A stretch of 64,000 bases of DNA from assembly GCA_037783545.1 (NCBI GenBank), contig JBBELK010001439.1:102134-166133 (forward strand), in the 5' to 3' direction. Shown in pieces: positions 1 through 64,000 of the stretch (positions within the stretch are counted from its first letter, which is position 1; the number at the start of each line of letters is the position of its first letter). The translations under genes were made by a program, and so were the position numbers. This DNA is from Henricia sp. BOLD:AAB3569 (lineage: Eukaryota > Echinodermata > Asteroidea > Spinulosida > Echinasteridae). A model generated the notes under the pieces. It searched no databases, was not told where the DNA came from, and saw nothing but the letters and a program-made list of their open reading frames with translations.

Positions 1-88
1 CTTCAAATTTGGCATGCCCTAAACTCTCTATATTGCGCACTTGTCATAAAAAATTGACAGACTTTCGCCGGGAAATGGCAGAGAAATT
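1..88. repeat. Partial monomer at left edge
   Basis: The window opens inside a unit, in 'cttcaaatttggcatgccc'. The T to G change (ttggc for tttgc) matches the unit at 684-980, so the array continues to the left and the local pattern is likely three units long. Confidence 0.9.
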
Positions 89-980
89 TCAAAGTTTAGA
101 AAAAACTGGGTTGAGGCTTCCTGACTGCTCTCGCGCAAACCGTGGCTGTCTTTACACACCTCTTTGGGGTACTCCTGAGTTGTGCGCATGCTCAGTCATT
201 CGGACTGTCGTTAACGCACCGCAGTTTGGCTCGGCAATTTGGTCAAAGTGTGGTCCAAACGTCGGCAAATTTGGAGGTCGAAAAATGTTCCGACGAACTT
301 CAAATTTTGCATGCCCTAAACTCTCTATATTGCGCACTTGTCATAAAAAAATTGACAGACTTTCGCCGGGAAATGGCAGAGAAATTTCAAAGTTTAGAAA
401 AAACTGGGTTGAGGCTTCCTGACTGCTCTCGCGCAAACCGTGGCTGTCTGTACACACCTCTTTGGGGTACTCCTGAGTTGTGCGCATGCTCAGTCATTCG
501 GACTGTCGTTAACGCACCGCAGTTTGGCTCGGCAATTTGGTCAAAGTGTGGTCCAAACGTCGGCAAATTTGGAGGTCGAAAAATGTTCCGACGAACTTCA
601 AATTTTGCATGCCCTAAACTCTCTATATTGCGCACTTGTCATAAAAAAATGACAGACTTTCGCCGGGAAATGGCAGAGAAATTTCAAAGTTTAGAAAAAA
701 CTGGGTTGAGGCTTCCTGACTGCTCTCGCGCAAACCGTAGCTGTCTGTACACACCTCTTTGGGGTACTCCTGAGTTGTGCGCATGCTCAGTCATTCGGAC
801 TGTCGTTAACGCACCGCAGTTTGGCTCGGCAATTTAGTCAAAGTGTGGTCCAAACGTCGGCAAATTTGGAGGTCGAAAAATGTTCTGACGAACTTCAAAT
901 TTGGCATGCCCTAAACTCTCTATATTGCGCACTTGTCATAAAAAATTGACAGACTTTCGCCGGGAAATGGCAGAGAAATT
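89..980. repeat. 3-unit higher-order pattern (892 bp)
   Basis: Units begin at 89, 387 and 684. The unit at 89 carries 'ctttacaca' in place of 'ctgtacaca' and recurs at 981. The 'ttggcatg' variant before 89 recurs before 981. Unit 89 is 298 bp because of a seventh A after 'cat'. The 'ctttaca' change removes the BsrGI site in those units. Confidence 0.7.
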
Positions 981-1575
981 TCAAAGTTTAGAAAAAACTG
1001 GGTTGAGGCTTCCTGACTGCTCTCGCGCAAACCGTGGCTGTCTTTACACACCTCTTTGGGGTACTCCTGAGTTGTGCGCATGCTCAGTCATTCGGACTGT
1101 CGTTAACGCACCGCAGTTTGGCTCGGCAATTTGGTCAAAGTGTGGTCCAAACGTCGGCAAATTTGGAGGTCGAAAAATATTCCGACGAACTTCAAATTTT
1201 GCATGCCCTAAACTCTCTATATTGCGCACTTGTCATAACAAATTGACAGACTTTCGCCGGGAAATGGCAGAGAAATTTCAAAGTTTAGAAAAAAACTGGG
1301 TTGAGGCTTCCTGATTGCTCTCGCGCAAACCGTGGCTGTCTGTACACACCTCTTTGGGGTACTCCTGAGTTGTGCGCATGCTCAGTCATTCGGACTGTCG
1401 TTAACGCACCGCAGTTTGGCTCGGCAATTTGGTCAAAGTGTGGTCCAAACGTCGGCAAATTTGGAGGTCGAAAAATGTTCCGACGAACTTCAAATTTTGC
1501 AAGCCCTAAACTCTCTATATTGCGCACTTGTCATAAAACATTGACAGACTTTCGCCGGGAAATGGCAGAGAAATT
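981..1575. repeat. Two satellite units, transition region
   Basis: The unit at 981 repeats the 'ctttacaca' type. The unit at 1278 is 298 bp (seven A before 'ctggg') and introduces 'gcaagccc' and 'cataaaacattg', markers of the following 4-unit block. No gene-like content is visible. Confidence 0.85.
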
Positions 1576-2311
1576 TTAAAGTTTAGAAAAAACTGGGTTG
1601 AGGCTTCCTGACTGCTCTCGCGCAAACCGTGGCTGTCTGTACACACCTCTTTGGGGTACTCCTGAGTTGTGCGCATGCTCAGTCATTCGGACTGTCGTTA
1701 ACGCACCGCAGTTTGGCTCGGCAATTTGGTCAAAGTGTGGTCCAAACGTCGGAAAATTTGGAGGTCGAAAAATGTTCCGACGAACTTCAAATTTTGCAAG
1801 CCCTAAACTCTCTATATTGCGCACTTGTCATAAAACATTGACAGACTTTCGCCGGGAAATGGAAGAGAAATTTCAAAGTTTAGAAAAAACTGGGTTGAGG
1901 CTTCCTGACTGCTCTCGCGCAAACCGTGGCTGTCTGTACACACCTCTTTGGGGTACTCCTGAGTTGTGCGCATGCTCAGTCATTCGGACTGTCGTTAACG
2001 CACCGCAGTTTGGCTCGGCAATTTGGTCAAAGTGTGGTCCAAACGTCGGCAAATTTGGAGGTCGAAAAATGTTCCGACGAACTTCAAATTTTGCATGCCC
2101 TAAACTCTCTATATTGCGCACTTGTCATAAAAAATTGACAGACTTTCGCCAGGAAATGGCAGAGAAATTTCAAAGTTTAGAAAAAACTGGGTTGAGGCTT
2201 CCTGACTGCTCTCGCGCAAACCGTGGCTGTCTGTACACACCTCTTTGGGGTACTCCTGAGTTGTGCGCATGCTCAGTCATTCGGACTGTCGTTAACGCAC
2301 CGCAGTTTGGC

Positions 2312-2355
2312 TCGGCAATTTGGTCAAAGTGTGGTCCAAACGTCGGCAAATTTGG
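2312..2355. repeat. Internal 31-bp-offset direct repeat within the monomer
   Basis: TCGGCAATTTGG at 2312-2323 recurs as TCGGCAAATTTGG at 2343-2355, offset 31 bp and differing by one A. The pair is present in essentially every unit. It may be a trace of a shorter ancestral subrepeat, but similarity outside these 12-13 bases is weak. Confidence 0.6.
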
Positions 2356-2376
2356 AGGTCGAAAAATGTTCCGACG
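2341..2376. other. Short dyad symmetry in the monomer (CGTCGG ... CCGACG)
   Basis: CGTCGG at 2341-2346 is the reverse complement of CCGACG at 2371-2376, with a 24-nt loop, and is repeated in nearly every unit. Other short dyads are ACAGAC with GTCTGT, and GTGCGCA with TGCGCAC across most of the unit. Short dyads are common by chance, so a structural role is only inference. Confidence 0.4.
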
Positions 2377-2763
2377 AACTTCAAATTTTGCATGCCCTAA
2401 ACTCTCTATATTGCGCACTTGTCATAAAAAATTGACAGACTTTCGCCGGGAAATGGCAGAGAAATTTCAAAGTTTAGAAAAAAATGGGTTGAGGCTTCCT
2501 GACTGCTCTCGCGCAAACCGTGGCTGTCTGTACACACCTCTTTGGGGTACTCCTGAGTTGTGCGCATGCTCAGTCATTCGGACTGTCGTTAACGCACCGC
2601 AGTTTGGCTCGGCAATTTGGTCAAAGTGTGGTCCAAACGTCGGCAAATTTGGAGGTCGAAAAATGTTCCGACGAACTTCAAATTTTGCATGCCCTAAACT
2701 CTCTATATTGCGCACTTGTCATAAAAAATTGACAGACTTTCGCCGGGAAATGGCAGAGAAATT

Positions 2764-3951
2764 TCAAAGTTTAGAAAAAAATGGGTTGAGGCTTCCTGAC
2801 TGCTCTCGCGCAAACCGTGGCTGTCTGTACACACCTCTTTGGGGTACTCCTGAGTTGTGCGCATGCTCAGTCATTCGGACTGTCGTTAACGCACCGCAGT
2901 TTGGCTCGGCAATTTGGTCAAAGTGTGGTCCAAACGTCGGAAAATTTGGAGGTCGAAAAATGTTCCGACGAACTTCAAATTTTGCAAGCCCTAAACTCTC
3001 TATATTGCGCACTTGTCATAAAACATTGACAGACTTTCGCCGGGAAATGGAAGAGAAATTTCAAAGTTTAGAAAAAACTGGGTTGAGGCTTCCTGACTGC
3101 TCTCGCGCAAACCGTGGCTGTCTGTACACACCTCTTTGGGGTACTCCTGAGTTGTGCGCATGCTCAGTCATTCGGACTGTCGTTAACGCACCGCAGTTTG
3201 GCTCGGCAATTTGGTCAAAGTGTGGTCCAAACGTCGGCAAATTTGGAGGTCGAAAAATGTTCCGACGAACTTCAAATTTTGCATGCCCTAAACTCTCTAT
3301 ATTGCGCACTTGTCATAAAAAATTGACAGACTTTCGCCAGGAAATGGCAGAGAAATTTCAAAGTTTAGAAAAAACTGGGTTGAGGCTTCCTGACTGCTCT
3401 CGCGCAAACCGTGGCTGTCTGTACACACCTCTTTGGGGTACTCCTGAGTTGTGCGCATGCTCAGTCATTCGGACTGTCGTTAACGCACCGCAGTTTGGCT
3501 CGGCAATTTGGTCAAAGTGTGGTCCAAACGTCGGCAAATTTGGAGGTCGAAAAATGTTCCGACGAACTTCAAATTTTGCATGCCCTAAACTCTCTATATT
3601 GCGCACTTGTCATAAAAAATTGACAGACTTTCGCCGGGAAATGGCAGAGAAATTTCAAAGTTTAGAAAAAAATGGGTTGAGGCTTCCTGACTGCTCTCGC
3701 GCAAACCGTGGCTGTCTGTACACACCTCTTTGGGGTACTCCTGAGTTGTGCGCATGCTCAGTCATTCGGACTGTCGTTAACGCACCGCAGTTTGGCTCGG
3801 CAATTTGGTCAAAGTGTGGTCCAAACGTCGGCAAATTTGGAGGTCGAAAAATGTTCCGACGAACTTCAAATTTTGCATGCCCTAAACTCTCTATATTGCG
3901 CACTTGTCATAAAAAATTGACAGACTTTCGCCGGGAAATGGCAGAGAAATT
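2764..3951. repeat. 4-unit HOR, copy 2 (1,188 bp)
   Basis: Units 2764, 3061, 3358 and 3655 repeat the variant order of 1576-2763. Shared variants include 'gcaagccc', 'aaaacattg', 'ggaagag', 'cgccagg' and 'aaaaaatggg'. The main difference is that its first unit begins with 'aaaaaatggg', as expected if it joined behind a unit of that type. Confidence 0.85.
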
Positions 3952-6900
3952 TCAAAGTTTAGAAAAAAATGGGTTGAGGCTTCCTGACTGCTCTCGCGCA
4001 AACCGTGGCTGTCTGTACACACCTCTTTGGGGTACTCCTGAGTTGTGCGCATGCTCAGTCATTCGGACTGTCGTTAACGCACCGCAGTTTGGCTCGGCAA
4101 TTTGGTCAAAGTGTGGTCCAAACGTCGGCAAATTTGGAGGTCGAAAAATGTTCCGACGAACTTCAAATTTTGCATGCCCTAAACTCTCTATATTGCGCAC
4201 TTGTCATAAAAAATTGACAGACTTTCGCCGGGAAATGGCAGAGAAATTTCAAAGTTTAGAAAAAAATGGGTTGAGGCTTCCTGACTGCTCTCGCGCAAAC
4301 CGTGGCTGTCTGTACACACCTCTTTGGGGTACTCCTGAGTTGTGCGCATGCTCAGTCATTCGGACTGTCGTTAACGCACCGCAGTTTGGCTCGGCAATTT
4401 GGTCAAAGTGTGGTCCAAACGTCGGCAAATTTGGAGGTCGAAAAATGTTCCGACGAACTTCAAATTTTGCATGCCCTAAACTCTCTATATTGCGCACTTG
4501 TCATACAAAATTGACAGACTTTCGCCAGGAAATGGCAGAGAAATTTCAAAGTTTAGAAAAAACTGGGTTGAGGCTTCCTGACTGCTCTCGCGCAAACCGT
4601 GACTGTCTGTACACACCTCTTTGGGGTACTCCTGAGTTGTGCGCATGCTCAGTCATTCGGACTGTCGTTAACGCACCGCAGTTTGGCTCGGCAATTTGGT
4701 CAAAGTGTGGTCCAAACGTCGGCAAATTTGGAGGTCGAAAAATGTTCCGACCAACTTCAAATTTTGCATGCCCTAAACTCTCTATATTGCGCACTTGTCA
4801 TAAAAAATTGACAGACTTTCGCCGGGAATGGCAGAGAAATTTCAAAGTTTAGAAAAAACTGGGTTGAGGCTTCCTGACTGCTCTCGCGCAAACCGTGGCT
4901 GTCTGTACACACCTCTTTGGGGTACTCCTGAGTTGTGCGCATGCTCAGTCATTCGGACTGTCGTTAACGCACCGCAGTTTGGCTCGGCAATTTGGTCAAA
5001 GTGTGGTCCAAACGTCGGCAAATTTGGAGGTCGAAAAATGTTCCGACGAACTTCAAATTTTGCATGCCCTAAACTCTCTATATTGCGCACTTGTCATACA
5101 AAATTGACAGACTTTCGCCGGGAAATGGCAGAGAAATTTCAAAGTTTAGAAAAAAATGGGTTGAGGCTTCCTGACTGCTCTCGCGCAAACCGTGGCTGTC
5201 TGTACACACCTCTTTGGGGTACTCCTGAGTTGTGCGCATGCTCAGTCATTCGGACTGTCGTTAACGCACCGCAGTTTGGCTCGGCAATTTGGTCAAAGTG
5301 TGGTCCAAACGTCGGCAAATTTGGAGGTCGAAAAATGTTCCGACGAACTTCAAATTTTGCATGCCCTAAACTCTCTATATTGCGCACTTGTCATACAAAA
5401 TTGACAGACTTTCGCCGGGAAATGGCAGAGAAATTTCAAAGTTTAGAAAAAACTGGGTTGAGGCTTCCTGACTGCTCTCGCGCAAACCGTGGCTGTCTGT
5501 ACACACCTCTTTGGGGTACTCCTGAGTTGTGCGCATGCTCAGTCATTCGGACTGTCGTTAACGCACCGCAGTTTGGCTCGGCAATTTGGTCAAAGTGTGG
5601 TCCAAACGTCGGCAAATTTGGAGGTCGAAAAATGTTCCGACGAACTTCAAATTTTGCATGCCCTAAACTCTCTATATTGCGCACTTGTCATAAAAAATTG
5701 ACAGACTTTCGCCGGGAAATGGCAGAGAAATTTCAAAGTTTAGAAAAAACTGGGTTGAGGCTTCCTGACTGCTCTCGCGCAAACCGTGGCTGTCTGTACA
5801 CACCTCTTTGGGGTACTCCTGAGTTGTGCGCATGCTCAGTCATTCGGACTGTCGTTAACGCACCGCAGTTTGGCTCGGCAATTTGGTCAAAGTGTGGTCC
5901 AAACGTCGGCAAATTTGGAGGTCGAAAAATGTTCCGACGAACTTCAAATTTTGCATGCCCTAAACTCTCTATATTGCGCACTTGTCATAAAAAATTGACA
6001 GACTTTCGCCGGGAAATGGCAGAGAAATTTCAAAGTTTAGAAAAAACTGGGTTGAGGCTTCCTGACTGCTCTCGCGCAAACCGTGGCTGTCTGTACACAC
6101 CTCTTTGGGGTACTCCTGAGTTGTGCGCATGCTCAGTCATTCGGACTGTCGTTAACGCACCGCAGTTTGGCTCGGCAATTTGGTCAAAGTGTGGTCCAAA
6201 CGTCGGCAAATTTGGAGGTCGAAAAATGTTCCGACGAACTTCAAATTTTGCATGCCCTAAACTCTCTATATTGCGCACTTGTCATAAAAAATTGACAGAC
6301 TTTCGCCGGGAAATGGCAGAGAAATTTCAAAGTTTAGAAAAAACTGGGTTGAGGCTTACTGACTGCTCTCGCGCAAACCGTGGCTGTCTGTACACACCTC
6401 TTTGGGGTACTCCTGAGTTGTGCGCATGCTCAGTCATTCGGACTGTCGTTAACGCACCGCAGTTTGGCTCGGCAATTTGGTCAAAGTGTGGTCCAAACGT
6501 CGGCAAATTTGGAAGTCGAAAAATGTTCCGACGAACTTCAAATTTTGCATGCCCTAAACTCTCTATATTGCGCACTTGTCATAAAAAATTGACAGACTTT
6601 CGCCGGGAAATGGCAGAGACATTTCAAAGTTTAGAAAAAACTGGGTTGAGGCTTCCTGACTGCTCTCGCGCAAACCGTGGCTGTCTGTACACGCCTCTTT
6701 GGGGTACTCCTGAGTTGTGCGCATGCTTAGTCATTCGGACTGTCGTTAACGCACCGCAGTTTGGCTCGGCAATTTGGTCAAAGTGTGGTCCAAACGTCGG
6801 CAAATTTGGAGGTCGAAAAATGTTCCGACGAACTTCAAATTTTGCATGCCCTAAACTCTCTATATTGCGCACTTGTCATAAAAAATTGACAGACTTTCGC

Positions 6901-7217
6901 CGGGAAATGGCAGAGAAATTTCAAAGTTTAGAAAAAACTGGGTTGAGGCTTCCTGACTGCTCTCGCGCAAACCGTGGCTGTCTGTACACACCTCTTTGGG
7001 GTACTCCTGAGTTGTGCGCATGCTCAGACATTCGGACTGTCGTTAACGCACCGCAGTTTGGCTCGGCAATTTGGTCAAAGTGTGGTCCAAACGTCGGCAA
7101 ATTTGGAGGTCGAAAAATGTTCCGACGAACTTCAAATTTTGCATGCCCTAAACTCTCTATATTGCGCACTTGTCATAAAAAATTGACAGACTTTCGCCGG
7201 GAAATGGCAGAGAAATT
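3952..7217. repeat. Mixed near-consensus satellite units
   Basis: Eleven units. Those at 3952, 4249 and 5139 carry 'aaaaaatggg'. Those at 4249, 4842 and 5139 end with 'catacaaaattg'. The unit at 4546 is 296 bp because one A is missing in 'gggaaatgg' near 4827. Units 5436, 5733 and 6030 are at or near exact consensus. Units 6327-6921 carry private changes such as 'ggcttactg', 'acacgcctc' and 'tcagacatt'. No other content is seen. Confidence 0.9.
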
Positions 7218-7498
7218 TCAAAGTTTAGAAAAAACTGGGTTGAGGCTTCCTGACTGCTCTCGCGCAAACCGTGGCTGTCTGTACACACCTCTTTGGGGGT
7301 ACTCCTGAGTTGTGCGCATGTCGTTAACGCACCGCAGTTTGGCTCGGCAATTTGGTCAAAGTGTGGTCCAAACGTCGGCAAATTTGGAGGTCGAAAAATG
7401 TTCCGACGAACTTCAAATTTTGCATGCCCTAAACTCTCTATATTGCGCACTTGTCATAAAAAATTGACAGACTTTCGCCGGGAAATGGCAGAGAAATT
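7218..7498. repeat. 281-bp deletion variant of the monomer, copy 1
   Basis: The deletion joins 7320 to 7321, removing 17 bp (ctcagtcattcggactg). A 2-nt TG microhomology flanks the lost segment. One G is gained in 'ttgggggtac', giving a net change of -16. Confidence 0.9.
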
Positions 7499-8389
7499 TC
7501 AAAGTTTAGAAAAAACTGGGTAAAGGCTTCCTGACTGCTCTCGCGCAAACCGTGGCTGTCTGTACACACCTCTTTGGGGTACTCCTGAGTTGTGCGCATG
7601 CTCAGTCATTCGGACTGTCGTTAACGCACCGCAGTTTGGCTCGGCAATTTAGTCAAAGTGTGGTCCAAACGTCGGCAAATTTGGAGGTCGAAAAATGTTC
7701 CGACGAACTTCAAATTGTGCATGCCCTAAACTCTCTATATTGCGCACTTGTCATAAAAAATTGACAGACTTTCGCCGGGAAATGGCAGAGAAATTTCAAA
7801 GTTTAGAAAAAACTGGGTTGAGGCTTCCTGACTGCTCTCGCGCAAACCGTGGCTGTCTGTACACACCTCTTTGGGGTACTCCTGAGTTGTGCGCATGCTC
7901 AGACATTCGGACTGTCGTTAACGCACCGCAGTTTGGCTCGGCAATTTGGTCAAAGTGTGGTCCAAACGTCGGCAAATTTGGAGGTCGAAAAATGTTCCGA
8001 CGAACTTCAAATTGTGCATGCCCTAAACTCTCTATATTGCGCACTTGTCATAACAAATTGACAGACTTTCGCCGGGAAATGGAAGAGAAATTTCAAAGTT
8101 TAGAAAAAACTGGGTTGAGGCTTCCTGACTGCTCTCGCGCAAACCGTGGCTGTCTGTACACACCTCTTTGGGGTACTCCTGAGTTGTGCGCATGCTCAGT
8201 CATTCGGACTGTCGTTAACGCACCGCAGTTTGGCTCGGCAATTTGGTCAAAGTGTGGTCCAAACGTCGGCAAATTTGGAGGTCGAAAAATGTTCCGACGA
8301 ACTTCAAATTTTGCATGCCCTAAACTCTCTATATTGCGCACTTGTCATAAAAAATTGACAGACTTTCGCCGGGAAATGGCAGAGAAATT
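7218..8389. repeat. 4-unit HOR with truncated unit, copy 1 (1,172 bp)
   Basis: Units 7218 (281 bp), 7499, 7796 and 8093. Markers are 'gggggtac' plus a 17-bp deletion; then 'aatttagtc' and 'aaattgtgc'; then 'tcagacatt' and 'aaattgtgc'; then consensus. The order is repeated from 8390. Confidence 0.9.
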
Positions 8390-8670
8390 TCAAAGTTTAG
8401 AAAAAACTGGGTTGAGGCTTCCTGACTGCTCTCGCGCAAACCGTGGCTGTCTGTACACACCTCTTTGGGGGTACTCCTGAGTTGTGCGCATGTCGTTAAC
8501 GCACCGCAGTTTGGCTCGGCAATTTGGTCAAAGTGTGGTCCAAACGTCGGCAAATTTGGAGGTCGAAAAATGTTCCGACGAACTTCAAATTTTGCATGCC
8601 CTAAACTCTCTATATTGCGCACTTGTCATAAAAAATTGACAGACTTTCGCCGGGAAATGGCAGAGAAATT
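8390..8670. repeat. 281-bp deletion variant of the monomer, copy 2
   Basis: Same 17-bp deletion (junction 8492/8493) and same extra G as at 7218, so it is a copy of one event and not a second deletion. Confidence 0.9.
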
Positions 8671-9561
8671 TCAAAGTTTAGAAAAAACTGGGTTAAGGCT
8701 TCCTGACTGCTCTCGCGCAAACCGTGGCTGTCTGTACACACCTCTTTGGGGTACTCCTGAGTTGTGCGCATGCTCAGTCATTCGGACTGTCGTTAACGCA
8801 CCGCAGTTTGGCTCGGCAATTTAGTCAAAGTGTGGTCCAAACGTCGGCAAATTTGGAGGTCGAAAAATGTTCCGACGAACTTCAAATTGTGCATGCCCTA
8901 AACTCTCTATATTGCGCACTTGTCATAAAAAATTGACAGACTTTCGCCGGGAAATGGCAGAGAAATTTCAAAGTTTAGAAAAAACTGGGTTGAGGCTTCC
9001 TGACTGCTCTCGCGCAAACCGTGGCTGTCTGTACACACCTCTTTGGGGTACTCCTGAGTTGTGCGCATGCTCAGACATTCGGACTGTCGTTAACGCACCG
9101 CAGTTTGGCTCGGCAATTTGGTCAAAGTGTGGTCCAAACGTCGGCAAATTTGGAGGTCGAAAAATGTTCCGACGAACTTCAAATTGTGCATGCCCTAAAC
9201 TCTCTATATTGCGCACTTGTCATAAAAAATTGACAGACTTTCGCCGGGAAATGGCAGAGAAATTTCAAAGTTTAGAAAAAACTGGGTTGAGGCTTCCTGA
9301 CTGCTCTCGCGCAAACCGTGGCTGTCTGTACACACCTCTTTGGGGTACTCCTGAGTTGTGCGCATGCTCAGTCATTCGGACTGTCGTTAACGCACCGCAG
9401 TTTGGCTCGGCAATTTGGTCAAAGTGTGGTCCAAACGTCGGCAAATTTGGAGGTCGAAAAATGTTCCGACGAACTTCAAATTTTGCATGCCCTAAACTCT
9501 CTATATTGCGCACTTGTCATAAAAAATTGACAGACTTTCGCCGGGAAATGGCAGAGAAATT
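8390..9561. repeat. 4-unit HOR with truncated unit, copy 2 (1,172 bp)
   Basis: Units 8390 (281 bp), 8671, 8968 and 9265 match copy 1 in variant order and in total length. Small differences ('ttaagg' against 'taaagg'; loss of 'aacaaatt' and 'ggaagag') show later divergence. Confidence 0.9.
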
Positions 9562-20244: not shown

Positions 20245-20564
20245 TCAAAGTTTAGAAAAAACTGGGTTGAGGTTCCTGACTGCTCTCGCGCAAACCGTGG
20301 CTGTCTGTACACACCTTTTTGGGGGTACTCCTGAGTTGTGCGCATGTCGTTAACGCACCGCAGTTTGGCTCGGCAATTTCGGACTGTCGTTAACGCACCG
20401 CAGTTTGGCTCGGCAATTTGGTCAAAGTGTGGTCCAAACGTCGGCAAATTTGGAGGTCGAAAAATGTTCCGACGAACTTCAAATTTTGCATGCCCTAAAC
20501 TCTCTATATTGCGCACTTGTCATAAAAAATTGACAGACTTTCGCCGGGAAATGGCAGAGAAATT
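20245..20564. repeat. 320-bp rearranged monomer, copy 1
   Basis: It has the 17-bp deletion and extra G of the 281-bp class. It also has a 40-bp-offset tandem duplication, with the same 35 bp at 20345-20379 and 20385-20419, and loss of one C in 'gaggttcc' for 'gaggcttcc'. 'acacctttttg' replaces 'acacctctttg'. The net length is 281 + 40 - 1 = 320. Confidence 0.9.
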
Positions 20565-21456
20565 TCAAAGTTTAGAACAAAACTGGGTTGAGGCTTCCTG
20601 ACTGCTCTCGCGCAAACCGTGGCTGTCTGTACACACCTCTTTGGGGTACTCCTGAGTTGTGCGCATGCTCAGTCATTCGGACTGTCGTTAACGCACCGCA
20701 GTTTGGCTCGGCAATTTGGTCAAAGTGTGGTCCAAACGTCGGCAAATTTGGAGGTCGAAAAATGTTCCGACGAACTTCAAATTTTGCATGCCCTAAACTC
20801 TCTATATTGCGCACTTGTCATAAAAAATTGACAGACTTTCGCCGGGAAATGGCAGAGAAATTTCAAAGTTTAGAAAAAACTGGGTTGAGGCTTCCTGACT
20901 GCTCTCGCGCAAACTGTGGCTGTCTGTACACACCTCTTTGGGGTACTCCTGAGTTGTGCGCATGCTCAGTCATTCGGACTGTCGTTAACGCACCGCAGTT
21001 TGGCTCGGCAATTTGGTCAAAGTGTGGTCCAAACGTCGGCAAATTTGGAGGTCGAAAAATGTTCCGACGAACTTCAAATTTTGCATGCCCTAAACTCTCT
21101 ATATTGCGCACTTGTCATAAAAAATTGACAGACTTTCGCCGGGAAATGGCAGAGAAATTTCAAAGTTTAGAAAAAACTGGGTTGAGGCTTCCTGACTGCT
21201 CTCGCGCAAACCGTGGCTGTCTGTACACACCTCTTTGGGGTACTCCTGAGTTGTGCGCATGCTCAGTCATTCGGACTGTCGTTAACGCACCGCACTTTGG
21301 CTCGGCAATTTGGTCAAAGTGTGGTCCAAACGTCGGCAAATTTGGAGGTCGAAAAATGTTCCGACGAACTTCAAATTTTGCATGCCCTAAACTCTCTATA
21401 TTGCGCACTTGTCATAAAAAAATGACAGACTTTCGCCGGGAAATGGCAGAGAAATT

Positions 21457-21776
21457 TCAAAGTTTAGAAAAAACTGGGTTGAGGTTCCTGACTGCTCTCG
21501 CGCAAACCGTGGCTGTCTGTACACACCTTTTTGGGGGTACTCCTGAGTTGTGCGCATGTCGTTAACGCACCGCAGTTTGGCTCGGCAATTTCGGACTGTC
21601 GTTAACGCACCGCAGTTTGGCTCGGCAATTTGGTCAAAGTGTGGTCCAAACGTCGGCAAATTTGGAGGTCGAAAAATGTTCCGACGAACTTCAAATTTTG
21701 CATGCCCTAAACTCTCTATATTGCGCACTTGTCATAAAAAATTGACAGACTTTCGCCGGGAAATGGCAGAGAAATT
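21457..21776. repeat. 320-bp rearranged monomer, copy 2
   Basis: The same rearrangement, with the duplicated 35 bp at 21557-21591 and 21597-21631. It is preceded by the 'cgcactttgg' unit and followed by a 'gaacaaaactgg' unit. Confidence 0.9.
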
Positions 21777-35773: not shown

Positions 35774-38154
35774 TCAAAGTTTAGAAAAAACTGGGTTGAG
35801 GCTTCCTGACTGCTCTCGCGCAAACCGTGGCTGTCTGTACACACCTCTTTGGGGTACTCCTGAGTTGTGCGCATGCTCAGTCATTCGGACTGTCGTTAAC
35901 GCACCGCAGTTTGGCTCGGCAATTTGGTCAAAGTGTGGTCCAAACGTCGGCAAATTTGGAGGTCGAAAAATGTTCCGACGAACTTCAAATTTTGCATGCC
36001 CTAAACTCTCTATATTGCGCACTTGTCATAAAAATTTGACAGACTTTCGCCGGGAAATGGCAGAGAAATTTCAAAGTTTAGAAACAAACTGGGTTGAGGC
36101 TTCCTGACTGCTCTCGCGCAAACCGTGGCTGTCTGTACACACCTCTTTGGGGTACTCCTGAGTTGTGCGCATGCTCAGTCATTCGGACTGTCGTTAACGC
36201 ACCGCAGTTTGGCTCGGCAATTTGGTCAAAGTGTGGTCCAAACGTCGGCAAATTTGGAGGTCGAAAAATGTTCCGACGAACTTCAAATTTTGCATGCCCT
36301 AAACTCTCTATATTGCGCACTTGTCATAAAAATTTGACAGACTTTCGCCGGGAAATGGCAGAGAAATTTCAAAGTTTAGAAACAAACTGGGTTGAGGCTT
36401 CCTGACTGCTCTCGCGCAAACCGTGGCTGTCTGTACACACCTCTTTGGGGTACTCCTGAGTTGTGCGCATGCTCAGTCATTCGGACTGTCGTTAACGCAC
36501 CGCAGTTTGGCTCGGCAATTTGGTCAAAGTGTGGTCCAAACGTCGGCAAATTTGGAGGTCGAAAAATGTTCCGACGAACTTCAAATTTTGCATGCCCTAA
36601 ACTCTCTATATTGCGCACTTGTCATAAAAAATTGACAGACTTTCGCCGGGAAATGGCAGAGAAATTTCAAAGTTTAGAAAAAACTGGGTTGAGGCTTCCT
36701 GACTGCTCTCGCGCAAACCGTGGCTGTCTGTACACACCTATTTGGGGTACTCCTGAGTTGTGCGCATGCTCAGTCATTCGGACTGTCGTTAACGCACCGC
36801 AGTTTGGCTCGGCAATTTGGTCAAAGTGTGGTCCAAACGTCGGCGAATTTGGAGGTCGAAAAATGTTCCGACGAACTTCAAATTTTGCATGCCCTAAACT
36901 CTCTATATTGCGCACTTGTCATAAGAAATTGACAGACTTTCGCCGGGAAATGGCAGAGAAATTTCAAAGTTTAGAAAAAACTGGGTTGAGGCTTCCTGAC
37001 TGCTCTCGCGCAAACCGTGGCTGTCTGTACACACCTCTTTGGGGTACTCCTGAGTTGTGCGCATGCTCAGTCATTCGGACTATCGTTAACGCACCGCAGT
37101 TTGGCTCGGCAATTTGGTCAAAGTGTGGTCCAAACTTCGGCAAATTTGGAGGTTGAAAAATGTTCCGACGAACTTCAAATTTTGCATGCCCTAAACTCTC
37201 TATATTGCGCACTTGTCATAACAAATTGACAGACTTTCGCCGGGAAATGGCAGAGAAATTTCAAAGTTTAGAAAAAACTGGGTTGAGGCTTCCTGACTGC
37301 TCTCGCGCAAACCGTGGCTGTCTGTACACACCTCTTTGGGGTACTCCTGAGTTGTGCGCATGCTCAGTCATTCGGACTGTCGTTAACGCACCGCAGTTTG
37401 GCTCGGCAATTTGGTCAAAGTGTGGTCCAAACGTCGGCAAATTTGGAGGTCGAAAAATGTTCCGACGAACTTCAAATTTTGCATGCCCTAAACTCTCTAT
37501 ATTGCGCACTTGTCATAAAAAATTGACAGACTTTCGCCGGGAAATGGCAGAGAAATTTCAAAGTTTAGAAAAAACTGGGTTGAGGCTTCCTGACTGCTCT
37601 CGCGCAAACCGTGGCTGTCTGTACACACCTCTTTGGGGTACTCCTGAGTTGTGCGCATGCTCAGTCATTCGGACTGTCGTTAACGCACCGCAGTTTGGCT
37701 CGGCAATTTGGTCAAAGTGTGGTCCAAACGTCGGCAAATTTGGAGGTCGAAAAATGTTCCGACGAACTTCAAATTTTGCATGCCCTAAACTCTCTATATT
37801 GCGCACTTGTCATAAAAATTTGACAGACTTTCGCCGGGAAATGGCAGAGAAATTTCAAAGTTTAGAAACAAACTGGGTTGAGGCTTCCTGACTGCTCTCG
37901 CGCAAACCGTGGCTGTCTGTACACACCTCTTTGGGGTACTCCTGAGTTGTGCGCATGCTCAGTCATTCGGACTGTCGTTAACGCACCGCAGTTTGGCTCG
38001 GCAATTTGGTCAAAGTGTGGTCCAAACGTCGGCAAATTTGGAGGTCGAAAAATGTTCCGACGAACTTCAAATTTTGCATGCCCTAAACTCTTTATATTGC
38101 GCACTTGTCATAAAAAAAATTGACATACTTTCGCCGGGAAATGGCAGAGAAATT

Positions 38155-54803: not shown

Positions 54804-55992
54804 TCAAAGTTTAGAAAAAACTGGGTTGAGGCTTCCTGACTGCTCTCGCGCAAACCGTGGCTGTCTGTACACACCTCTTTGGGGTACTCCTGAGTTGTGC
54901 GCATGCTCAGTCATTCGGACTGTCGTTAACGCACCGCAGTTTGGCTCGGCAATTTGGTCAAAGTGTGGTCCAAACGTCGGCAAATTTGGAGGTCGAAAAA
55001 TGTTCCGACGAACTTCAAATTTTGCATGCCCTAAACTCTCTATATTGCGCACTTGTCATAAAAAATTGACAGACTTTCGCCGGGAAATGGCTGAGAAATT
55101 TCAAAGTTTAGAAAAAACTGGGTTGAGGCTTCCTGACTGCTCTCGCGCAAACCGTGGCTGTCTGTACACACCTCTTTGGGGTACTCCTGAGTTGTGCGCA
55201 TGCTCAGTCATTCGGACTGTCGTTAACGCACCGCAGTTTGGCTCGGCAATTTGGTCAAAGTGTGGTCCAAACGTCGGCAAATTTGGAGGTCGAAAAATGT
55301 TCCGACGAACTTCAAATTTTGCATGCCCTAAACTCTCTATATTGCGCACTTGTCATAAAAAAATTGACAGACTTTCGCCGGGAAATGGCAGAGAAATTTC
55401 AAAGTTTAGAAAAAACTGGGTTGAGGCTTCCTGACTGCTCTCGCGCAAACCGTGGCTGTCTGTACACACCTCTTTGGGGTACTCCTGAGTTGTGCGCATG
55501 CTCAGTCATTCGGACTGTCGTTAACGCACCGCAGTTTGGCTCGGCAATTTGGTCAAAGTGTGGTCCAAACGTCGGCAAATTTGGAGGTCGAAAAATGTTC
55601 CGACGAACTTCAAATTTTGCATGCCCTAAACTCTCTATATTGCGCACTTGTCATAAAAAATTGACAGACTTTCGCCGGGAAATGGCAGAGAAATTTCAAA
55701 GTTTAGAAAAAACTGGGTTGAGGCTTCCTGACTGCTCTCGCGCAAACCGTGGCTGTCTGTACACACCTCTTTGGGGTACTCCTGAGTTGTGCGCATGCTC
55801 AGTCATTCGGACTGTCGTTAACGCACCGCAGTTTGGCTCGGCAATTTGGTCAAAGTGTGGTCCAAACGTCGGCAATTTTGGAGGTCGAAAAATTTTCCGA
55901 CGAACTTCAAATTTTGCATGCCCTAAACTCTCTATATTGCGCACTTGTCATAAAAAATTGACAGACTTTCGCCGGGAAATGGCAGAGAAATT
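54210..55992. repeat. 6-unit HOR period (1,783 bp)
   Basis: The pair 54210 ('cttgtcttaaa') and 54507 ('gaaacattttcc', 'acttaaaattgtgc') recurs at 55993 and 56290. Between them are near-consensus units, one of 298 bp (55101) and one with 'ggcaattttgg' (55696). This period overlaps the 4-unit HOR at its left end. Confidence 0.8.
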
Positions 55993-58370
55993 TCAAAGTT
56001 TAGAAAAAACTGGGTTGAGGCTTCCTGACTGCTCTCGCGCAAACCGTGGCTGTCTGTACACACCTCTTTGGGGTACTGCTGAGTTGTGCGCATGCTCAGT
56101 AATTCGGACTGTCGTTAACGCACCGCAGTTTGGCTCGGCAATTTGGTCAAAGTGTGGTCCAAACGTCGGCAAATTTGGAGGTCGAAAAATGTTCCGACGA
56201 ACTTCAAATTTTGCATGCCCTAAACTCTCTATATTGCGCACTTGTCTTAAAAAATTGACAGACTTTCGCCGGGAAATGGCAGAGAAATTTCAAAGTTTAG
56301 AAAAAACTGGGTTGAGGCTTCCTGACTGCTCTCGCGCAAACCGTGGCTGTCTGTACACACCTCTTTGGGGTACTCCTGAGTTGTGCGCATGCTCAGTCAT
56401 TCGGACTGTCGTTAACGCACCGCAGTTTGGCTCGGCAATTTGGTCAAAGTGTGGTCCAAACGTCGGCAATTTTGGAGGTCGAAACATTTTCCGACGAACT
56501 TAAAATTGTGCATGCCCTAAACTCTCTATATTGCGCACTTGTCATAAAAAATTGACAGACTTTCGCCGGGAAATGGCTGAGAAATTTCAAAGTTTAGAAA
56601 AAACTGGGTTGAGGCTTCCTGACTGCTCTCGCGCAAACCGTGGCTGTCTGTACACACCTCTTTGGGGTACTCCTGAGTTGTGCGCATGCTCAGTCATTCG
56701 GACTGTCGTTAACGCACCGCAGTTTGGCTCGGCAATTTGGTCAAAGTGTGGTCCAAACGTCGGCAAATTTGGAGGTCGAAAAATGTTCCGACGAACTTCA
56801 AATTTTGCATGCCCTAAACTCTCTATATTGCGCACTTGTCATACAAAATTGACAGACTTTCGCCGGGAAATGGCTGAGAAATTTCAAAGTTTAGAAAAAA
56901 CTCGGTTGAGGCTTCCTGACTGCTCTCGCGCAAACCGTGGCTGTCTGTACACACCTCTTTGGGGTACTCCTGAGTTGTGCGCATGCTCAGTCATTCGGAC
57001 TGTCGTTAACGCACCGCAGTTTGGCTCGGCAATTTGGTCAAAGTGTGGTCCAAACGTCGGCAAATTTGGAGGTCGAAAAATGTTCCGACGAACTTCAAAT
57101 TTTGCATGCCCTAAACTCTCTATATTGCGCACTTGTCATACAAAATTGACAGACTTTCGCCGGGAAATGGCTGATAAATTTCAAAGTTTAGAAAAAACTG
57201 GGTTGAGGCTTCCTGACTGCTCTCGCGCAAACCGTGGCTGTCTGTACACACCTCTTTGGGGTACTCCTGAGTTGTGCGCATGCTCAGTCATTCGGACTGT
57301 CGTTAACGCACCGCAGTTTGGCTCGGCAATTTGGTCAAAGTGTGGTCCAAACGTCGGCAAATTTGGAGGTCGAAAAATGTTCTGACGAACTTCAAATTTT
57401 GCATGCCCTAAACTCTCTATATTGCGCACTTGTCATAAAAAAATTGACAGACTTTCGCCGGGAAATGGCAGAGAAATTTCAAAGTTTAGAAAAAACTGGG
57501 TTGAGGCTTCCTGACTGCTCTCGCGCAAACCGTGGCTGTCTGTACACACCTCTTTGGGGTACTCCTGAGTTGTGCGCATGCTCAGTCATTCGGACTGTCG
57601 TTAACGCACCGCAGTTTGGCTCGGCAATTTGGTCAAAGTGTGGTCCAAACGTCGGCAAATTTGGAGGTCGAAAAATGTTCCGACGAACTTCAAATTTTGC
57701 ATGCCCTAAACTCTCTATATTGCGCACTTGTCATAAAAAATTGACAGACTTTCGCCGGGAAATGGCAGAGAAATTTCAAAGTTTAGAAAAAACTGGGTTG
57801 AGGCTTCCTGACTGCTCTCGCGCAAACCGTGGCTGTCTGTACACACCTCTTTGGGGTACTCCTGAGTTGTGCGCATGCTCAGTCATTCGGACTGTCGTTA
57901 ACGCACCGCAGTTTGGCTCGGCAATTTGGTCAAAGTGTGGTCCAAACGTCGGCAATTTTGGAGGTCGAAACATGTTCCGACGAACTTCAAATTTTGCATG
58001 CCCTAAACTCTCTATATTGCGCACTTGTCATAAAAAATTGACAGACTTTCGCCGGGAAATGGCTGAGAAATTTCAAAGTTTAGAAAAAACTGGGTTGAGG
58101 CTTCCTGACTGCTCTCGCGCAAACCGTGGCTGTCTGTACACACCTCTTTGGGGTACTCCTGAGTTGTGCGCATGCTCAGTCATTCGGACTGTCGTTAACG
58201 CACCGCAGTTTGGCTCGGCAATTTGGTCAAAGTGTGGTCCAAACGTCGGCAAATTTGGAGGTCGAAAAATGTTCCGACGAACTTCAAATTTTGCATGCCC
58301 TAAACTCTCTATATTGCGCACTTGTCATAAAAAAATTGACAGACTTTCGCCGGGAAATGGCAGAGAAATT
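55993..58370. repeat. Second copy of the 6-unit start, then mixed units
   Basis: 55993 and 56290 repeat 54210 and 54507. 'aaatggctgag' marks the ends of 56290 and 56587. Units 56587 and 56884 share 'catacaaa'. Unit 56884 has 'ctcggttg' and ends 'ggctgataaa'. Unit 57181 has 'ttctgacg'. Unit 57776 has 'ggcaattttgg' with 'gaaacatg'. Confidence 0.8.
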
Positions 58371-61300
58371 TCAAAGTTTAGAAAAAACTGGGTTGAGGCT
58401 TCCTGACTGCTCTCGCGCAAACCGTGGCTGTCTGTACACACCTCTTTGGGGTACTCCTGAGTTGTGCGCATGCTCAGTCATTCGGACTGTCGTTAACGCA
58501 CCGCAGTTTGGCTCGGCAATTTGGTCAAAGTGTGGTCCAAACGTCGGCAAATTTGGAGGTCGAAAAATGTTCCGACGAACTTCAAATTTTGCATGCCCTA
58601 AACTCTCTATATTGCGCACTTGTCATAAAAAAATTGACAGACTTTCGCCGGGAAATGGCAGAGAAATTTAAAGTTTAGAAAAAACTGGGTTGAGGCTTCC
58701 TGACTGCTCTCGCGCAAACCGTGGCTGTCTGTACACACCTCTTTGGGGTACTCCTGAGTTGTGCGCATGCTCAGTCATTCGGACTGTCGTTAACGCACCG
58801 CAGTTTGGCTCGGCAATTTGGTCAAAGTGTGGTCCAAACGTCGGCAAATTTGGAGGTCGAAAAATGTTCCGACGAACTTCAAATTGTGCATGCCCTAAAC
58901 TCTCTATATTGCGCACTTGTCATAAAAAATTGACAGACTTTCGCCGGGAAATGGCAGAGAAATTTCAAAGTTTAGAAAAAACTGGGTTGAGGCTTCCTGA
59001 CTGCTCTCGCGCAAACCGTGGCTGTCTGTACACACCTCTTTGGGGTACTCCTGAGTTGTGCGCATGCTCAGTCATTCGGACTGTCGTTAACGCACCGCAG
59101 TTTGGCTCGGCAATTTGGTCAAAGTGTGGTCCAAACGTCGGCAAATTTGGAGGTCGAAAAATGTTCCGACGAACTTCAAATTTTGCATGCCCTAAACTCT
59201 CTATATTGCGCACTTGTCATAAAAAATTGACAGACTTTCGCCGGGAAATGGCAGAGAAATTTCAAAGTTTAGAAAAAACTGGGTTGAGGCTTCCTGACTG
59301 CTCTCGCGCAAACCGTGGCTGTCTGTACACACCTCTTTGGGGTACTCCTGAGTTGTGCGCATGCTCAGTAATTCGGACTGTCGTTAACGCACCGCAGTTT
59401 GGCTCGGCAATTTGGTCAAAGTGTGGTCCAAACGTCGGCAAATTTGGAGGTCGAAAAATGTTCCGACGAACTTCAAATTTTGCATGCCCTAAACTCTCTA
59501 TATTGCGCACTTGTCTTAAAAAATTGACAGACTTTCGCCGGGAAATGGCAGAGAAATTTCAAAGTTTAGAAAAAACTGGGTTGAGGCTTCCTGACTGCTC
59601 TCGCGCAAACCGTGGCTGTCTGTACACACCTCTTTGGGGTACTCCTGAGTTGTGCGCATGCTCAGTCATTCGGACTGTCGTTAACGCACCGCAGTTTGGC
59701 TCGGCAATTTGGTCAAAGTGTGGTCCAAACGTCGGCAAATTTGGAGGTCGAAAAATTTTCCGACGAACTTCAAATTTTGCATGCCCTAAACTCTCTATAT
59801 TGCGCACTTGTCATAAAAAATTGACAGACTTTCGCCGGGAAATGGCAGAGAAATTTCAAAGTTTAGAAAAAACTGGGTTGAGGCTTCCTGACTGCTCTCG
59901 CGCAAACCGTGGCTGTCTGTACACACCTCTTTGGGGTACTCCTGAGTTGTGCGCATGCTCAGTCATTCGGACTGTCGTTAACGCACCGCAGTTTGGCTCG
60001 GCAATTTGGTCAAAGTGTGGTCCAAACGTCGGCAAATTTGGAGGTCGAAAAATGTTCCGACGAACTTCAAATTTTGCATGCCCTAAACTCTCTATATTGC
60101 GCACTTGTCATAAAAAAATTGACAGACTTTCGCCGGGAAATGGCAGAGAAATTTCAAAGTTTAGAAAAAACTGGGTTGAGGCTTCCTGACTGCTCTCGCG
60201 CAAACCGTGGCTGTCTGTACACACCTCTTTGGGGTACTCCTGAGTTGTGCGCATGCTCAGTCATTCGGACTGTCGTTAACGCACCGCAGTTTGGCTCGGC
60301 AATTTGGTCAAAGTGTGGTCCAAACGTCGGCAAATTTGGAGGTCGAAAAATGTTCCGACGAACTTCAAATTTTGCATGCCCTAAACTCTCTATATTGCGC
60401 ACTTGTCATAAAAAAATTGACAGACTTTCGCCGGGAAATGGCAGAGAAATTTCAAAGTTTAGAAAAAACTGGGTTGAGGCTTCCTGACTGCTCTCGCGCA
60501 AACCGTGGCTGTCTGTACACACCTCTTTGGGGTACTCCTGAGTTGTGCGCATGCTCAGTCATTCGGACTGTCGTTAACGCACCGCAGTTTGGCTCGGCAA
60601 TTTGGTCAAAGTGTGGTCCAAACGTCGGCAAATTTGGAGGTCGAAAAATGTTCCGACGAACTTCAAATTGTGCATGCCCTAAACTCTCTATATTGCGCAC
60701 TTGTCATAAAAAATTGACAGACTTTCGCCGGGAAATGGCAGAGAAATTTCAAAGTTTAGAAAAAACTGGGTTGAGGCTTCCTGACTGCTCTCGCGCAAAC
60801 CGTGGCTGTCTGTACACACCTCTTTGGGGTACTCCTGAGTTGTGCGCATGCTCAGTAATTCGGACTGTCGTTAACGCACCGCAGTTTGGCTCGGCAATTT
60901 GGTCAAAGTGTGGTCCAAACGTCGGCAAATTTGGAGGTCGAAAAATGTTCCGACGAACTTCAAATGTTGCATGCCCTAAACTCTCTATATTGCGCACTTG
61001 TCATAAAAAATTGACAGACTTTCGCCGGGAAATGGCAGAGAAATTTCAAAGTTTAGAAAAAACTGGGTTGAGGCTTCCTGACTGCTCTCGCGCAAACCGT
61101 GGCTGTCTGTACACACCTCTTTGGGGTACTCCTGAGTTGTGCGCATGCTCAGTCATTCGGACTGTCGTTAACGCACCGCAGTTTGGCTCGGCAATTTGGT
61201 CAAAGTGTGGTCCAAACGTCGGCAAATTTGGAGGTCGAAAAATGTTCCGACGAACTTCAAATTTTGCATGCCCTAAACTCTCTATATTGCGCACTTGTCA

Positions 61301-62234
61301 TAAAAAAATTGACAGACTTTCGCCGGGAAATGGCAGAGAAATTTCAAAGTTTAGAAAAAACTGGGTTGAGGCTTCCTGACTGCTCTCGCGCAAACCGTGG
61401 CTGTCTGTACACACCTCTTTGGGGTACTCCTGAGTTGTGCGCATGCTCAGTCATTCGGACTGTCGTTAACGCACCGCAGTTTGGCTCGGCAATTTGGTCA
61501 AAGTGTGGTCCAAACGTCGGCAAATTTGGAGGTCGAAAAATGTTCCGACGAACTTCAAATTTTGCATGCCCTAAACTCTCTATATTGCGCACTTGTCATA
61601 AAAAATTGACAGACTTTCGCCGGGAAATGGCAGAGAAATTTCAAAGTTTAGAAAAAACTGGGTTGAGGCTTCCTGACTGCTCTCGCGCAAACCGTGGCTG
61701 TCTGTACACACCTCTTTGGGGTACTCCTGAGTTGTGCGCATGCTCAGTCATTCGGACTGTCGTTAACGCACCGCAGTTTGGCTCGGCAATTTGGTCAAAG
61801 TGTGGTCCAAACGTCGGCAAATTTGGAGGTCGAAAAATGTTCCGACGAACTTCAAATTTTGCATGCCCTAAACTCTCTATATTGCGCACTTGTCATAAAA
61901 AATTGACAGACTTTCGCCGGGAAATGGCAGAGAAATTTCAAAGTTTAGAAAAAACTGGGTTGAGGCTTCCTGACTGCTCTCGCGCAAACCGTGGCTGTCT
62001 GTACACACCTCTTTGGGGTACTCCTGAGTTGTGCGCATGCTCAGTAATTCGGACTGTCGTTAACGCACCGCAGTTTGGCTCGGCAATTTGGTCAAAGTGT
62101 GGTCCAAACGTCGGCAAATTTGGAGGTCGAAAAATGTTCCGACGAACTTCAAATTTTGCATGCCCTAAACTCTCTATATTGCGCACTTGTCATAAAAAAT
62201 TGACAGACTTTCGCCGGGAAATGGCAGAGAAATT
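58371..62234. repeat. Loosely patterned satellite units
   Basis: Thirteen units. 'aaattgtgc' marks 58668 and 60452. 'cagtaattc' marks 59262, 60749 and 61938. 'cttgtcttaaa' marks 59262. 'aaatgttgc' marks 60749. Units 59856, 60154 and 61046 are 298 bp. At about 58669 one C is missing in 'aaatttaaag'. Confidence 0.85.
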
Positions 62235-62530
62235 TCAAAGTTTAGAAAAAACTGGGTTGAGGCTTCCTGACTGCTCTCGCGCAAACCGTGGCTGTCTGTA
62301 CACACCTCTTTGGGGTACTCCTGAGTTGTGCGCATGCTCAGTCATTCGGACTGTCGTTAACGCACCGCAGTTTGGCTCGGCAATTTGGTCAAAGTGTGGT
62401 CCAAACGTCGGCAATTTGGAGGTCGAAACATGTTCCGACGAACTTCAAATTTTGCATGCCCTAAACTCTCTATATTGCGCACTTGTCATAAAAAATTGAC
62501 AGACTTTCGCCGGGAAATGGCAGAGAAATT
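62235..62530. repeat. 296-bp monomer with one-base loss
   Basis: It reads 'ggcaatttggagg' with 'gaaacatg'. The closest relative (57776) reads 'ggcaattttggagg', so one T has been lost near 62415. This may be real or a homopolymer call error. Confidence 0.75.
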
Positions 62531-63720
62531 TCAAAGTTTAGAAAAAACTGGGTTGAGGCTTCCTGACTGCTCTCGCGCAAACCGTGGCTGTCTGTACACA
62601 CCTCTTTGGGGTACTCCTGAGTTGTGCGCATGCTCAGTCATTCGGACTGTCGTTAACGCACCGCAGTTTGGCTCGGCAATTTGGTCAAAGTGTGGTCCAA
62701 ACGTCGGCAAATTTGGAGGTCGAAAAATGTTCCGACGAACTTCAAATTTTGCATGCCCTAAACTCTCTATATTGCGCACTTGTCATAAAAAAATTGACAG
62801 ACTTTCGCCGGGAAATGGCAGAGAAATTTCAAAGTTTAGAAAAAACTGGGTTGAGGCTTCCTGACTGCTCTCGCGCAAACCGTGGCTGTCTGTACACACC
62901 TCTTTGGGGTACTCCTGAGTTGTGCGCATGCTCAGTCATTCGGACTGTCGTTAACGCACCGCAGTTTGGCTCGGCAATTTGGTCAAAGTGTGGTCCAAAC
63001 GTCGGCAAATTTGGAGGTCGAAAAATGTTCCGACGAACTTCAAATTTTGCATGCCCTAAACTCTCTATATTGCGCACTTGTCATAAAAAAATTGACAGAC
63101 TTTCGCCGGGAAATGGCAGAGAAATTTCAAAGTTTAGAAAAAACTGGGTTGAGGCTTCCTGACTGCTCTCGCGCAAACCGTGGCTGTCTGTACACACCTC
63201 TTTGGGGTACTCCTGAGTTGTGCGCATGCTCAGTCATTCGGACTGTCGTTAACGCACCGCAGTTTGGCTCGGCAATTTGGTCAAAGTGTGGTCCAAACGT
63301 CGGCAAATTTGGAGGTCGAAAAATGTTCCGACGAACTTCAATTTTTGCATGCCCTAAACTCTCTATATTGCGCACTTGTCATAAAAAATTGACAGACTTT
63401 CGCCGGGAAATGGCAGAGAAATTTCAAAGTTTAGAAAAAACTGGGTTGAGGCTTCCTGACTGCTCTCGCGCAAACCGTGGCTGTCTGTACACACCTCTTT
63501 GGGGTACTCCTGAGTTGTGCGCATGCTCAGTAATTCGGACTGTCGTTAACGCACCGCAGTTTGGCTCGGCAATTTGGTCAAAGTGTGGTCCAAACGTCGG
63601 CAAATTTGGAGGTCGAAAAATGTTCCGACGAACTTCAAATGTTGCATGCCCTAAACTCTCTATATTGCGCACTTGTCATAAAAAATTGACAGACTTTCGC
63701 CGGGAAATGGCAGAGAAATT
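62531..63720. repeat. Last complete satellite units
   Basis: Units 62531 (298 bp), 62829 (298 bp), 63127 ('caatttttgc') and 63424 ('cagtaattc', 'aaatgttgc'). The last resembles 60749, nine units upstream. Confidence 0.9.
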
Positions 63721-64000
63721 TCAAAGTTTAGAAAAAACTGGTTGAGGCTTCCTGACTGCTCTCGCGCAAACCGTGGCTGTCTGTACACACCTCTTTGGGG
63801 TACTCCTGAGTTGTGCGCATGCTCAGTAATTCGGACTGTCGTTAACGCACCGCAGTTTGCTCGGCAATTTGGTCAAAGTGTGGTCCAAACGTCGGCAAAT
63901 TTGGAGGTCGAAAAATGTTCCGACGAACTTCAAATGTTGCATGCCCTAAACTCTCTATATGCGCACTTGTCATAAAAAATTGACAGACTTTCGCGCGGAA
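63721..64000. repeat. Terminal partial monomer with clustered indels
   Basis: It shares 'cagtaattc' and 'aaatgttgc' with the unit before it. It has three single-base deletions: one G in 'aactggttg' (about 63740), one G in 'agtttgctcgg' (about 63859) and one T in 'tctatatgcgc' (about 63960). 'tcgcgcggaa' replaces 'tcgccgggaa' in the last ten bases. No other unit has this density of indels. Confidence 0.85.

What the first reader, a model, noticed from the sequence alone, without database searches (positions are those of the whole stretch)
1..64000. 64 kb of a single uninterrupted 297-bp satellite with no insertion or inversion
I can follow 214 complete units in one orientation without a transposon, gap or foreign base. 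I do not recognise the monomer from known satellite families, so it may be undescribed. The purity suggests an actively homogenised array core and not an eroded edge.
Basis: partly seen in the sequence, partly recalled or inferred. Interest (0 to 1): 0.7.

Follow-up and report, generated by a model that had tools for sequence, protein, structure and literature searches.

The report
Satellite DNA targeted by mobile element
The stretch is an ordinary-looking tandem satellite, probably of a sea star, but elsewhere in that genome the same satellite is repeatedly invaded, at one position of its repeat unit, by a short mobile element that behaves like the retroelements of ribosomal RNA genes.

Summary
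In detail: the 64 kb are one head-to-tail 297-bp satellite, 214 whole units, one strand, no foreign base. By itself this is an ordinary noncoding satellite, homogenised by local duplication without a regular higher-order repeat. Mitochondrial gene order suggests a sea star (order recalled).

"No insertion" is true of the window only. The window ends a 166-kb contig that also holds a second subfamily and two copies of a 678-bp insert. Genome-wide, 835 exact copies of the insert's 3' end join the satellite at one site, plus 24 with a two-base variant. Two copies identical over 700 bases sit in flanks differing at 33 of 349. Three 5' junction types were seen, one a 23-bp duplication of upstream satellite; two copies carry donor-type flank ending between -17 and -32. 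Site-specific target-primed reverse transcription, as described for R2, would leave such marks. I infer a short, nonautonomous, satellite-specific retroelement. No autonomous partner was found (none was properly searched for), and no HDV-like ribozyme. Centromeric function is untested.

The parts
1..64000 (+). Satellite array, subfamily A, 297-bp unit, 214 complete units, no insert
2170..2466 (+).
221..242 (+). First whole example in the window of the (here empty) insertion site, GCAGTTTGG-CTC-GGCAATTTGG; present once per intact unit
   Evidence: sequence; site defined
7246..7526 (+). 281-bp unit with a 17-bp deletion about 44 bp upstream of the site; two similar units start at 8418 and 10481
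20272..20593 (+). 322-bp unit with the same breakpoint plus a duplication that repeats the site; two more start at 21484 and 25073

Best explanation
The window is a noncoding satellite array, probably of a sea star, kept uniform by unequal exchange that duplicates blocks of a few units. The satellite is also the target of a short (about 0.5-0.7 kb) nonautonomous retroelement that inserts in one orientation at one position of the unit (GCAGTTTGG-CTC-GGCAATTTGG). Shown: one nearly constant 3' junction with a rare two-base variant, three 5' junction types, near-identical elements in strongly diverged satellite subfamilies, and donor-type upstream flank carried along in two copies. Inferred: an RNA that starts about 23 nt upstream in the satellite is reverse transcribed from a nick at the site (target-primed reverse transcription) by the protein of an unseen autonomous non-LTR element, probably of an R2-like, site-specific kind. 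The 23 nt either anneal to the new target (clean junction) or are added as a duplication. Unequal exchange then multiplies filled units together with the satellite. The window is a stretch with no filled unit.
For: Site: 835 exact tail-plus-satellite junctions (399 forward, 436 reverse), 24 with TCGG kept and 796 exact 5' junctions, against 1037 exact tails in all (the patterns differ, so 1037 is not a strict superset). In 25 of 25 primary copies read from the satellite (20, brought in by a satellite copy as query; 5, chosen by the 3' junction itself) the satellite continues at the same monomer position. Mobility: L042 against L025 element 0 of 700 differences, upstream flank 33 of 349; L040 against L025 1 of 700 and 29 of 343. 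L012 against L014 element 99.85%, flank 98.2%, no better than random in-phase window satellite (mean 98.47%, sd 1.1). 5' junctions: of the 20 copies, 14 carry the 23-bp upstream duplication and 6 are clean with CTC missing; of the 5, 4 are clean and one (L039) lacks about 30 bp of upstream target. Flank co-transfer: in L031 8 of 8 empty neighbours have subfamily letters at -17 and -9, while the filled unit has the A letters there and the local letter at -32; L042 likewise, with only one empty neighbour. R2 leaves similar junctions: 2-4 bp target deletions and 24-26 bp upstream duplications (PMC3774820, section 10 and passages).
Against: No reverse transcriptase or autonomous relative was found; none was searched for by family. 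No HDV-like ribozyme: Rfam has none and my descriptor scan gives nothing above the best shuffles. The start of the template RNA at -23 is inferred from the duplication, not measured. Many copies are clearly multiplied with the satellite and not inserted anew (L012/L013, L027/L028, L021/L024). Three of three isolated tails that I fetched lie outside the satellite, so the tail alone is not satellite-bound. Three of the five copies in diverged subfamilies (L040, L041, L043) carry local-type flank, which the model allows but which is not diagnostic. Gene conversion is not formally excluded.
Confidence: 0.78

Rival explanations
1. Passive spread: one ancient insertion, multiplied and dispersed together with the satellite by unequal exchange; no targeted transposition.
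For: Local duplicates exist: L012/L013, L027/L028, L021/L023/L024 share element and flank at 99.9-100%; the two inserts of C1439 lie in a duplicated block.
Against: Elements 0-4 of 700 apart in flanks 6-10% apart (L040-L043 against L025, L027, L029); three 5' and two 3' junction types; element and flank identity barely correlate over 190 pairs (r = 0.16).
Confidence: 0.07
2. Gene conversion: filled units are copied into other arrays as short tracts by homology of the flanks, without a reverse transcriptase.
For: Tandem satellites convert readily; conversion could carry a little flank, as in L031 and L042.
Against: Does not by itself make the 23-bp duplication, the L039 deletion or the second 3' end; tract ends in L031 and L042 fall in the same narrow interval, -17 to -32; 3' flank ends abruptly at the element.
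Confidence: 0.1
3. A rolling-circle (Helitron or Helentron-like) or other DNA element with site preference.
For: The 3' end has a hairpin about 10 nt from the terminus, and relatives lie within MITE-like repeats.
Against: The terminus is not the CTRR end of Helitrons (recalled); upstream flank travels with the 5' end; variable 5' and fixed 3' ends are the pattern of reverse transcription.
Confidence: 0.05

Closest known systems
R2 non-LTR retrotransposons of 28S rRNA genes and their Short Internally Deleted Elements, SIDEs (PMC3774820: abstract, passages, section 10; PMC3414825: abstract and outline)
   Same: One insertion site in a tandem array, fixed 3' end, variable 5' end, 2-4 bp target deletions, 24-26 bp duplications of upstream target, short nonautonomous copies spread by a presumed partner.
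   Different: The target is a noncoding satellite, not 28S rDNA; no HDV-like ribozyme detected; no partner seen; an internal 67-bp repeat changes the element's length in steps.
R2NS-1_PMi of the bat star Patiria miniata (PMC5035012: passages)
   Same: An R2-lineage family of a sea star without a proven 28S target, so a possible kind of partner.
   Different: Its boundaries and target are unknown; no sequence of it was compared here.
YURE elements of sea squirts, occasionally inserted in the U2-derived satellite U2_sat (PMC4640811: passages)
   Same: Non-LTR elements found inserted in a satellite.
   Different: That satellite derives from a U2 gene and insertion is called occasional; here the satellite has no Rfam match and hundreds of copies share one site.
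SINEs with a central domain and a LINE-derived 3' tail (recalled class)
   Same: Dispersed relatives share a core (73-84% over 74-159 bp) and the 3' tail.
   Different: No tRNA head found and no Rfam family; the satellite copies have a 5' part not seen in the three dispersed loci. No SINE library was available.

Membership tests
Satellite DNA | Long head-to-tail array of near-identical units | tested here: met
Satellite DNA | Noncoding | tested here: met
   One frame of the consensus is open, but 100 distinct substitutions are 16 synonymous, 74 nonsynonymous, 10 stop against 22.6, 71.5, 5.9 expected; an open frame arises in 3,146 of 20,000 simulated units
Satellite DNA | High copy number in the genome | tested here: inconclusive
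   Inserts joined to satellite on 31 contigs among 106 listed places; the count of the satellite itself did not complete, and the DNA search skips common words
Centromeric satellite | Binds CENH3 / CENP-A | not testable with these tools
   needs CUT&RUN or ChIP
Higher-order-repeat satellite | Regular multi-unit period | tested here: not met
   Mean identity is nearly flat over lags 1-59 (0.985-0.988); only local block duplications
R2-like site-specific retroelement | One target site with nearly constant 3' junction | tested here: met
R2-like site-specific retroelement | Variable 5' junction with upstream target duplication or small deletion | tested here: met
R2-like site-specific retroelement | HDV-like ribozyme at the 5' end | tested here: not met
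R2-like site-specific retroelement | Autonomous copy with reverse transcriptase and restriction-like endonuclease | not tested
   No reverse transcriptase search was run; pairing of listed ends and 5 of 25 unpaired ends showed only short elements
R2 proper | Inserts in 28S rRNA genes | tested here: not met
   The 25 copies read lie in the 297-bp satellite, which has no Rfam match; copies in rDNA were not sought

The most novel reading that the evidence does not exclude
A whole retroelement system that lives in a satellite as R2 lives in rDNA: an autonomous satellite-specific non-LTR element, a short nonautonomous rider, and a transcribed satellite that supplies the 5' end of the template RNA, so that the satellite serves as a safe harbour and, through repeated nicking at one site, may itself be stirred into exchange.
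Probability: 0.35. Interest if true: 0.75.

Novelty: new variant of a known kind. Interest (0 to 1): 0.57.

Why it matters
Strict site specificity for a long noncoding satellite would extend the known safe harbours of such elements (rDNA, snRNA genes, telomeric repeats, microsatellites). Satellites are mostly thought to pick up mobile elements passively; here insertion and array exchange can be told apart, because the element keeps time separately from its flanks and because co-transferred flank marks the donor. That makes the link between nicking, insertion and satellite turnover testable within one genome.

Tried and rejected
Coding satellite: rejected. CENP-B box: none with one mismatch or fewer; three sites with two mismatches. 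Regular higher-order repeat: rejected. RNA gene or tRNA in the window: none. HDV-like ribozyme at the element's 5' end: not supported. The satellite in phage records, or by exact pattern in prokaryote genomes and viral contigs: none. Indel hotspot as a nick footprint: all five indel rows of 4 bp or more in 467 A units lie within 44 bp upstream of the site, but 128 units of other contigs gave none, and the one deletion seen there (25 bp, L022) lies outside this region; it is post hoc and short direct repeats are an alternative, so it is not used as evidence. A first flank comparison slipped by whole units and was replaced. The unpaired 3' ends (25 of the 106 listed) were hoped to be long partners; 5 of the 25 were fetched and all 5 were short elements with other 5' flanks. 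For one search I left out 9 of the 100 listed 5' places and 18 of the 24 TCGG places, because they lie beyond the end of the listed 3' places. The tail identity of the dispersed loci is partly by selection, since an exact tail pattern brought them in.
Full report
Check of the observation. The 64 kb are a single array of a 297-bp unit: TRF gives one row, 215.2 copies, 98% matches; an anchor search gives 214 complete units, 109 distinct, none on the minus strand. No foreign base lies in the window. Rfam and tRNA scans of the window are empty, as are a blastn search of the phage records and exact-pattern scans of prokaryote genomes and viral contigs.

Where it lies. The window is G000:C1439:102134-166133, the very end of a 166,133-bp contig of a 740.7-Mb assembly in 2,104 contigs. 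The mitochondrial contig C2104 is 16,221 bp; a 4.3-kb part of it, read, has COX1-trnR-ND4L-COX2-trnK under the echinoderm code, and the tRNA cluster lies beside COX1, mostly on the other strand.

The satellite itself. Mean pairwise identity in the window is 98.6%. Identical units, the three commonest types left out, lie near each other (92 pairs, median 12 units apart; shuffles about 64), and blocks of up to seven units are duplicated in the contig. There is no fixed higher-order period. One reading frame is open through the consensus but shows no constraint: fewer synonymous and more stop changes than expected. Contig bases 1 to about 25,000 belong mostly to a second subfamily, consensus 296 bp, about 12% diverged (78 units analysed, mean identity 97.6%). 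The change from one to the other occurs inside a unit, and a junction was duplicated with a lag of 11,249 bp. All this is ordinary satellite behaviour.

The insert. The only foreign stretches of the contig are two identical 678-bp inserts at C1439:34568-35245 and 37031-37708, lying in a duplicated block. A search with the insert gave 45 matches; 40 of 1,247 first-look candidates were scored. In the 20 loci cut out, satellite lies on both sides and continues at the same monomer position (the output was cut, one search shows the junctions of all 20). Exact patterns count 835 plus 24 satellite 3' junctions and 796 satellite 5' junctions, against 1037 exact tails. Each long answer lists only the first 100 places. 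Of 106 listed 3' ends, 81 pair with a listed 5' end at 496-701 bp; lengths differ in steps of about 33 and 67 bp, and 67 bp is the period of the internal repeat.

Junctions. The clean type reads GCAGTTTGG|element|GGCAATTTGG, with CTC lost. The duplication type reads GGCTCG|GTCGTTAACGCACCGCAGTTTGG|element, so that 23 bp of upstream satellite are repeated and the target is complete. Of 20 primary copies 14 are of the duplication type and 6 clean. A second 3' end (TCGG kept) occurs. L039 has a third 5' junction with about 30 bp of upstream target gone. Locus L020 holds one copy of each main type.

Mobility against passive spread. In L040-L043 the element is 0-4 of 700 bases from the copies in L025, L027 and L029 while the upstream flanks differ by 6-10%. 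L012 and L014 share an element at 99.85% in flanks no more alike than random in-phase satellite. Over 190 pairs element and flank identity barely correlate (r = 0.16). Local duplicates exist too, so both processes act. In L031 the filled unit has A-type letters at -17 and -9 where 8 of 8 empty neighbours have other letters, and it has the local letter at -32; L042 shows the same with one empty neighbour. The transferred flank thus ends in the interval that contains -23, the start of the duplication. L040, L041 and L043 carry local letters.

Relatives. Three isolated tails in large contigs (L036-L038) lie outside the satellite, amid repeats with TTAACACC motifs, and share a core at 73-84% over 74-159 bp and the tail. 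The element thus belongs to a dispersed short family of which one branch sits in the satellite. No tRNA was found in them.

Mechanism. R2 elements leave the same kind of marks: silkmoth junctions have 2-3 bp deletions and about 10% have 24-25 bp upstream duplications, one jewel wasp has 26 bp in 70%, sow bug a 4-bp deletion with a 24-bp duplication; the explanation there is RNA cleaved upstream within the co-transcript, up to 36 nt from the junction (PMC3774820, abstract, section 10 and passages). Short riders of R2 (SIDEs) exist (PMC3414825, abstract). I infer the same route here. Shown: site, junctions, recent movement, flank transfer in two copies. Inferred: RNA intermediate, partner protein, co-transcription, start at -23. 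Not met: an HDV-like ribozyme. Not tested: a reverse transcriptase partner.

Literature. Those on satellites of starfish, sea stars and echinoderms and on site-specific insertion into satellites listed no paper that describes this element or, by title and abstract start, this satellite; PMC10153287 (passages) analysed satellites of one starfish and was not compared. An R2-lineage family of a sea star without known target, R2NS-1_PMi, is reported (PMC5035012, passages), and YURE elements lie occasionally in a U2-derived satellite (PMC4640811, passages).

Verdict. The finding as given is a correct description of an ordinary satellite and would score about 0.2. What makes it worth a second look lies outside its coordinates: the satellite is the site-specific target of a short, recently mobile element.

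Noticed in passing
contig C1439, about 13.5-25.2 kb (upstream of the window): A subfamily junction inside one satellite unit is itself duplicated with a lag of 11,249 bp, a clear footprint of unequal exchange.
   Followed up: partly
contig C955 (48,576 bp), loci L032-L034: Three copies of the mitochondrial COX1 at a spacing of exactly 16,221 bp, the length of the separate mitochondrial contig C2104: a head-to-tail triple of mtDNA, probably an assembly of the circle.
   Followed up: no
contig C120, 609397-612678: Six copies of the element's tail at a spacing of about 608-675 bp on one strand, absent from the listed satellite junctions: the dispersed relative may form a small tandem array of its own.
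   Followed up: no
window units at 7246, 8418, 10481, 20272, 21484, 25073; contig C1439 67305-88891: All indel rows of 4 bp or more among 467 A units lie within 44 bp upstream of the insertion site; one deletion elsewhere, in L022, does not.
   Followed up: partly
L037 464-860: Two partial copies of the dispersed relative side by side, amid repeats with TTAACACC motifs.
   Followed up: no
L013 about 1495-1540: The element's first bases can pair with the 23 bp of satellite in front of it, giving a predicted hairpin whose base is the start of the duplicated flank; not tested against chance.
   Followed up: no
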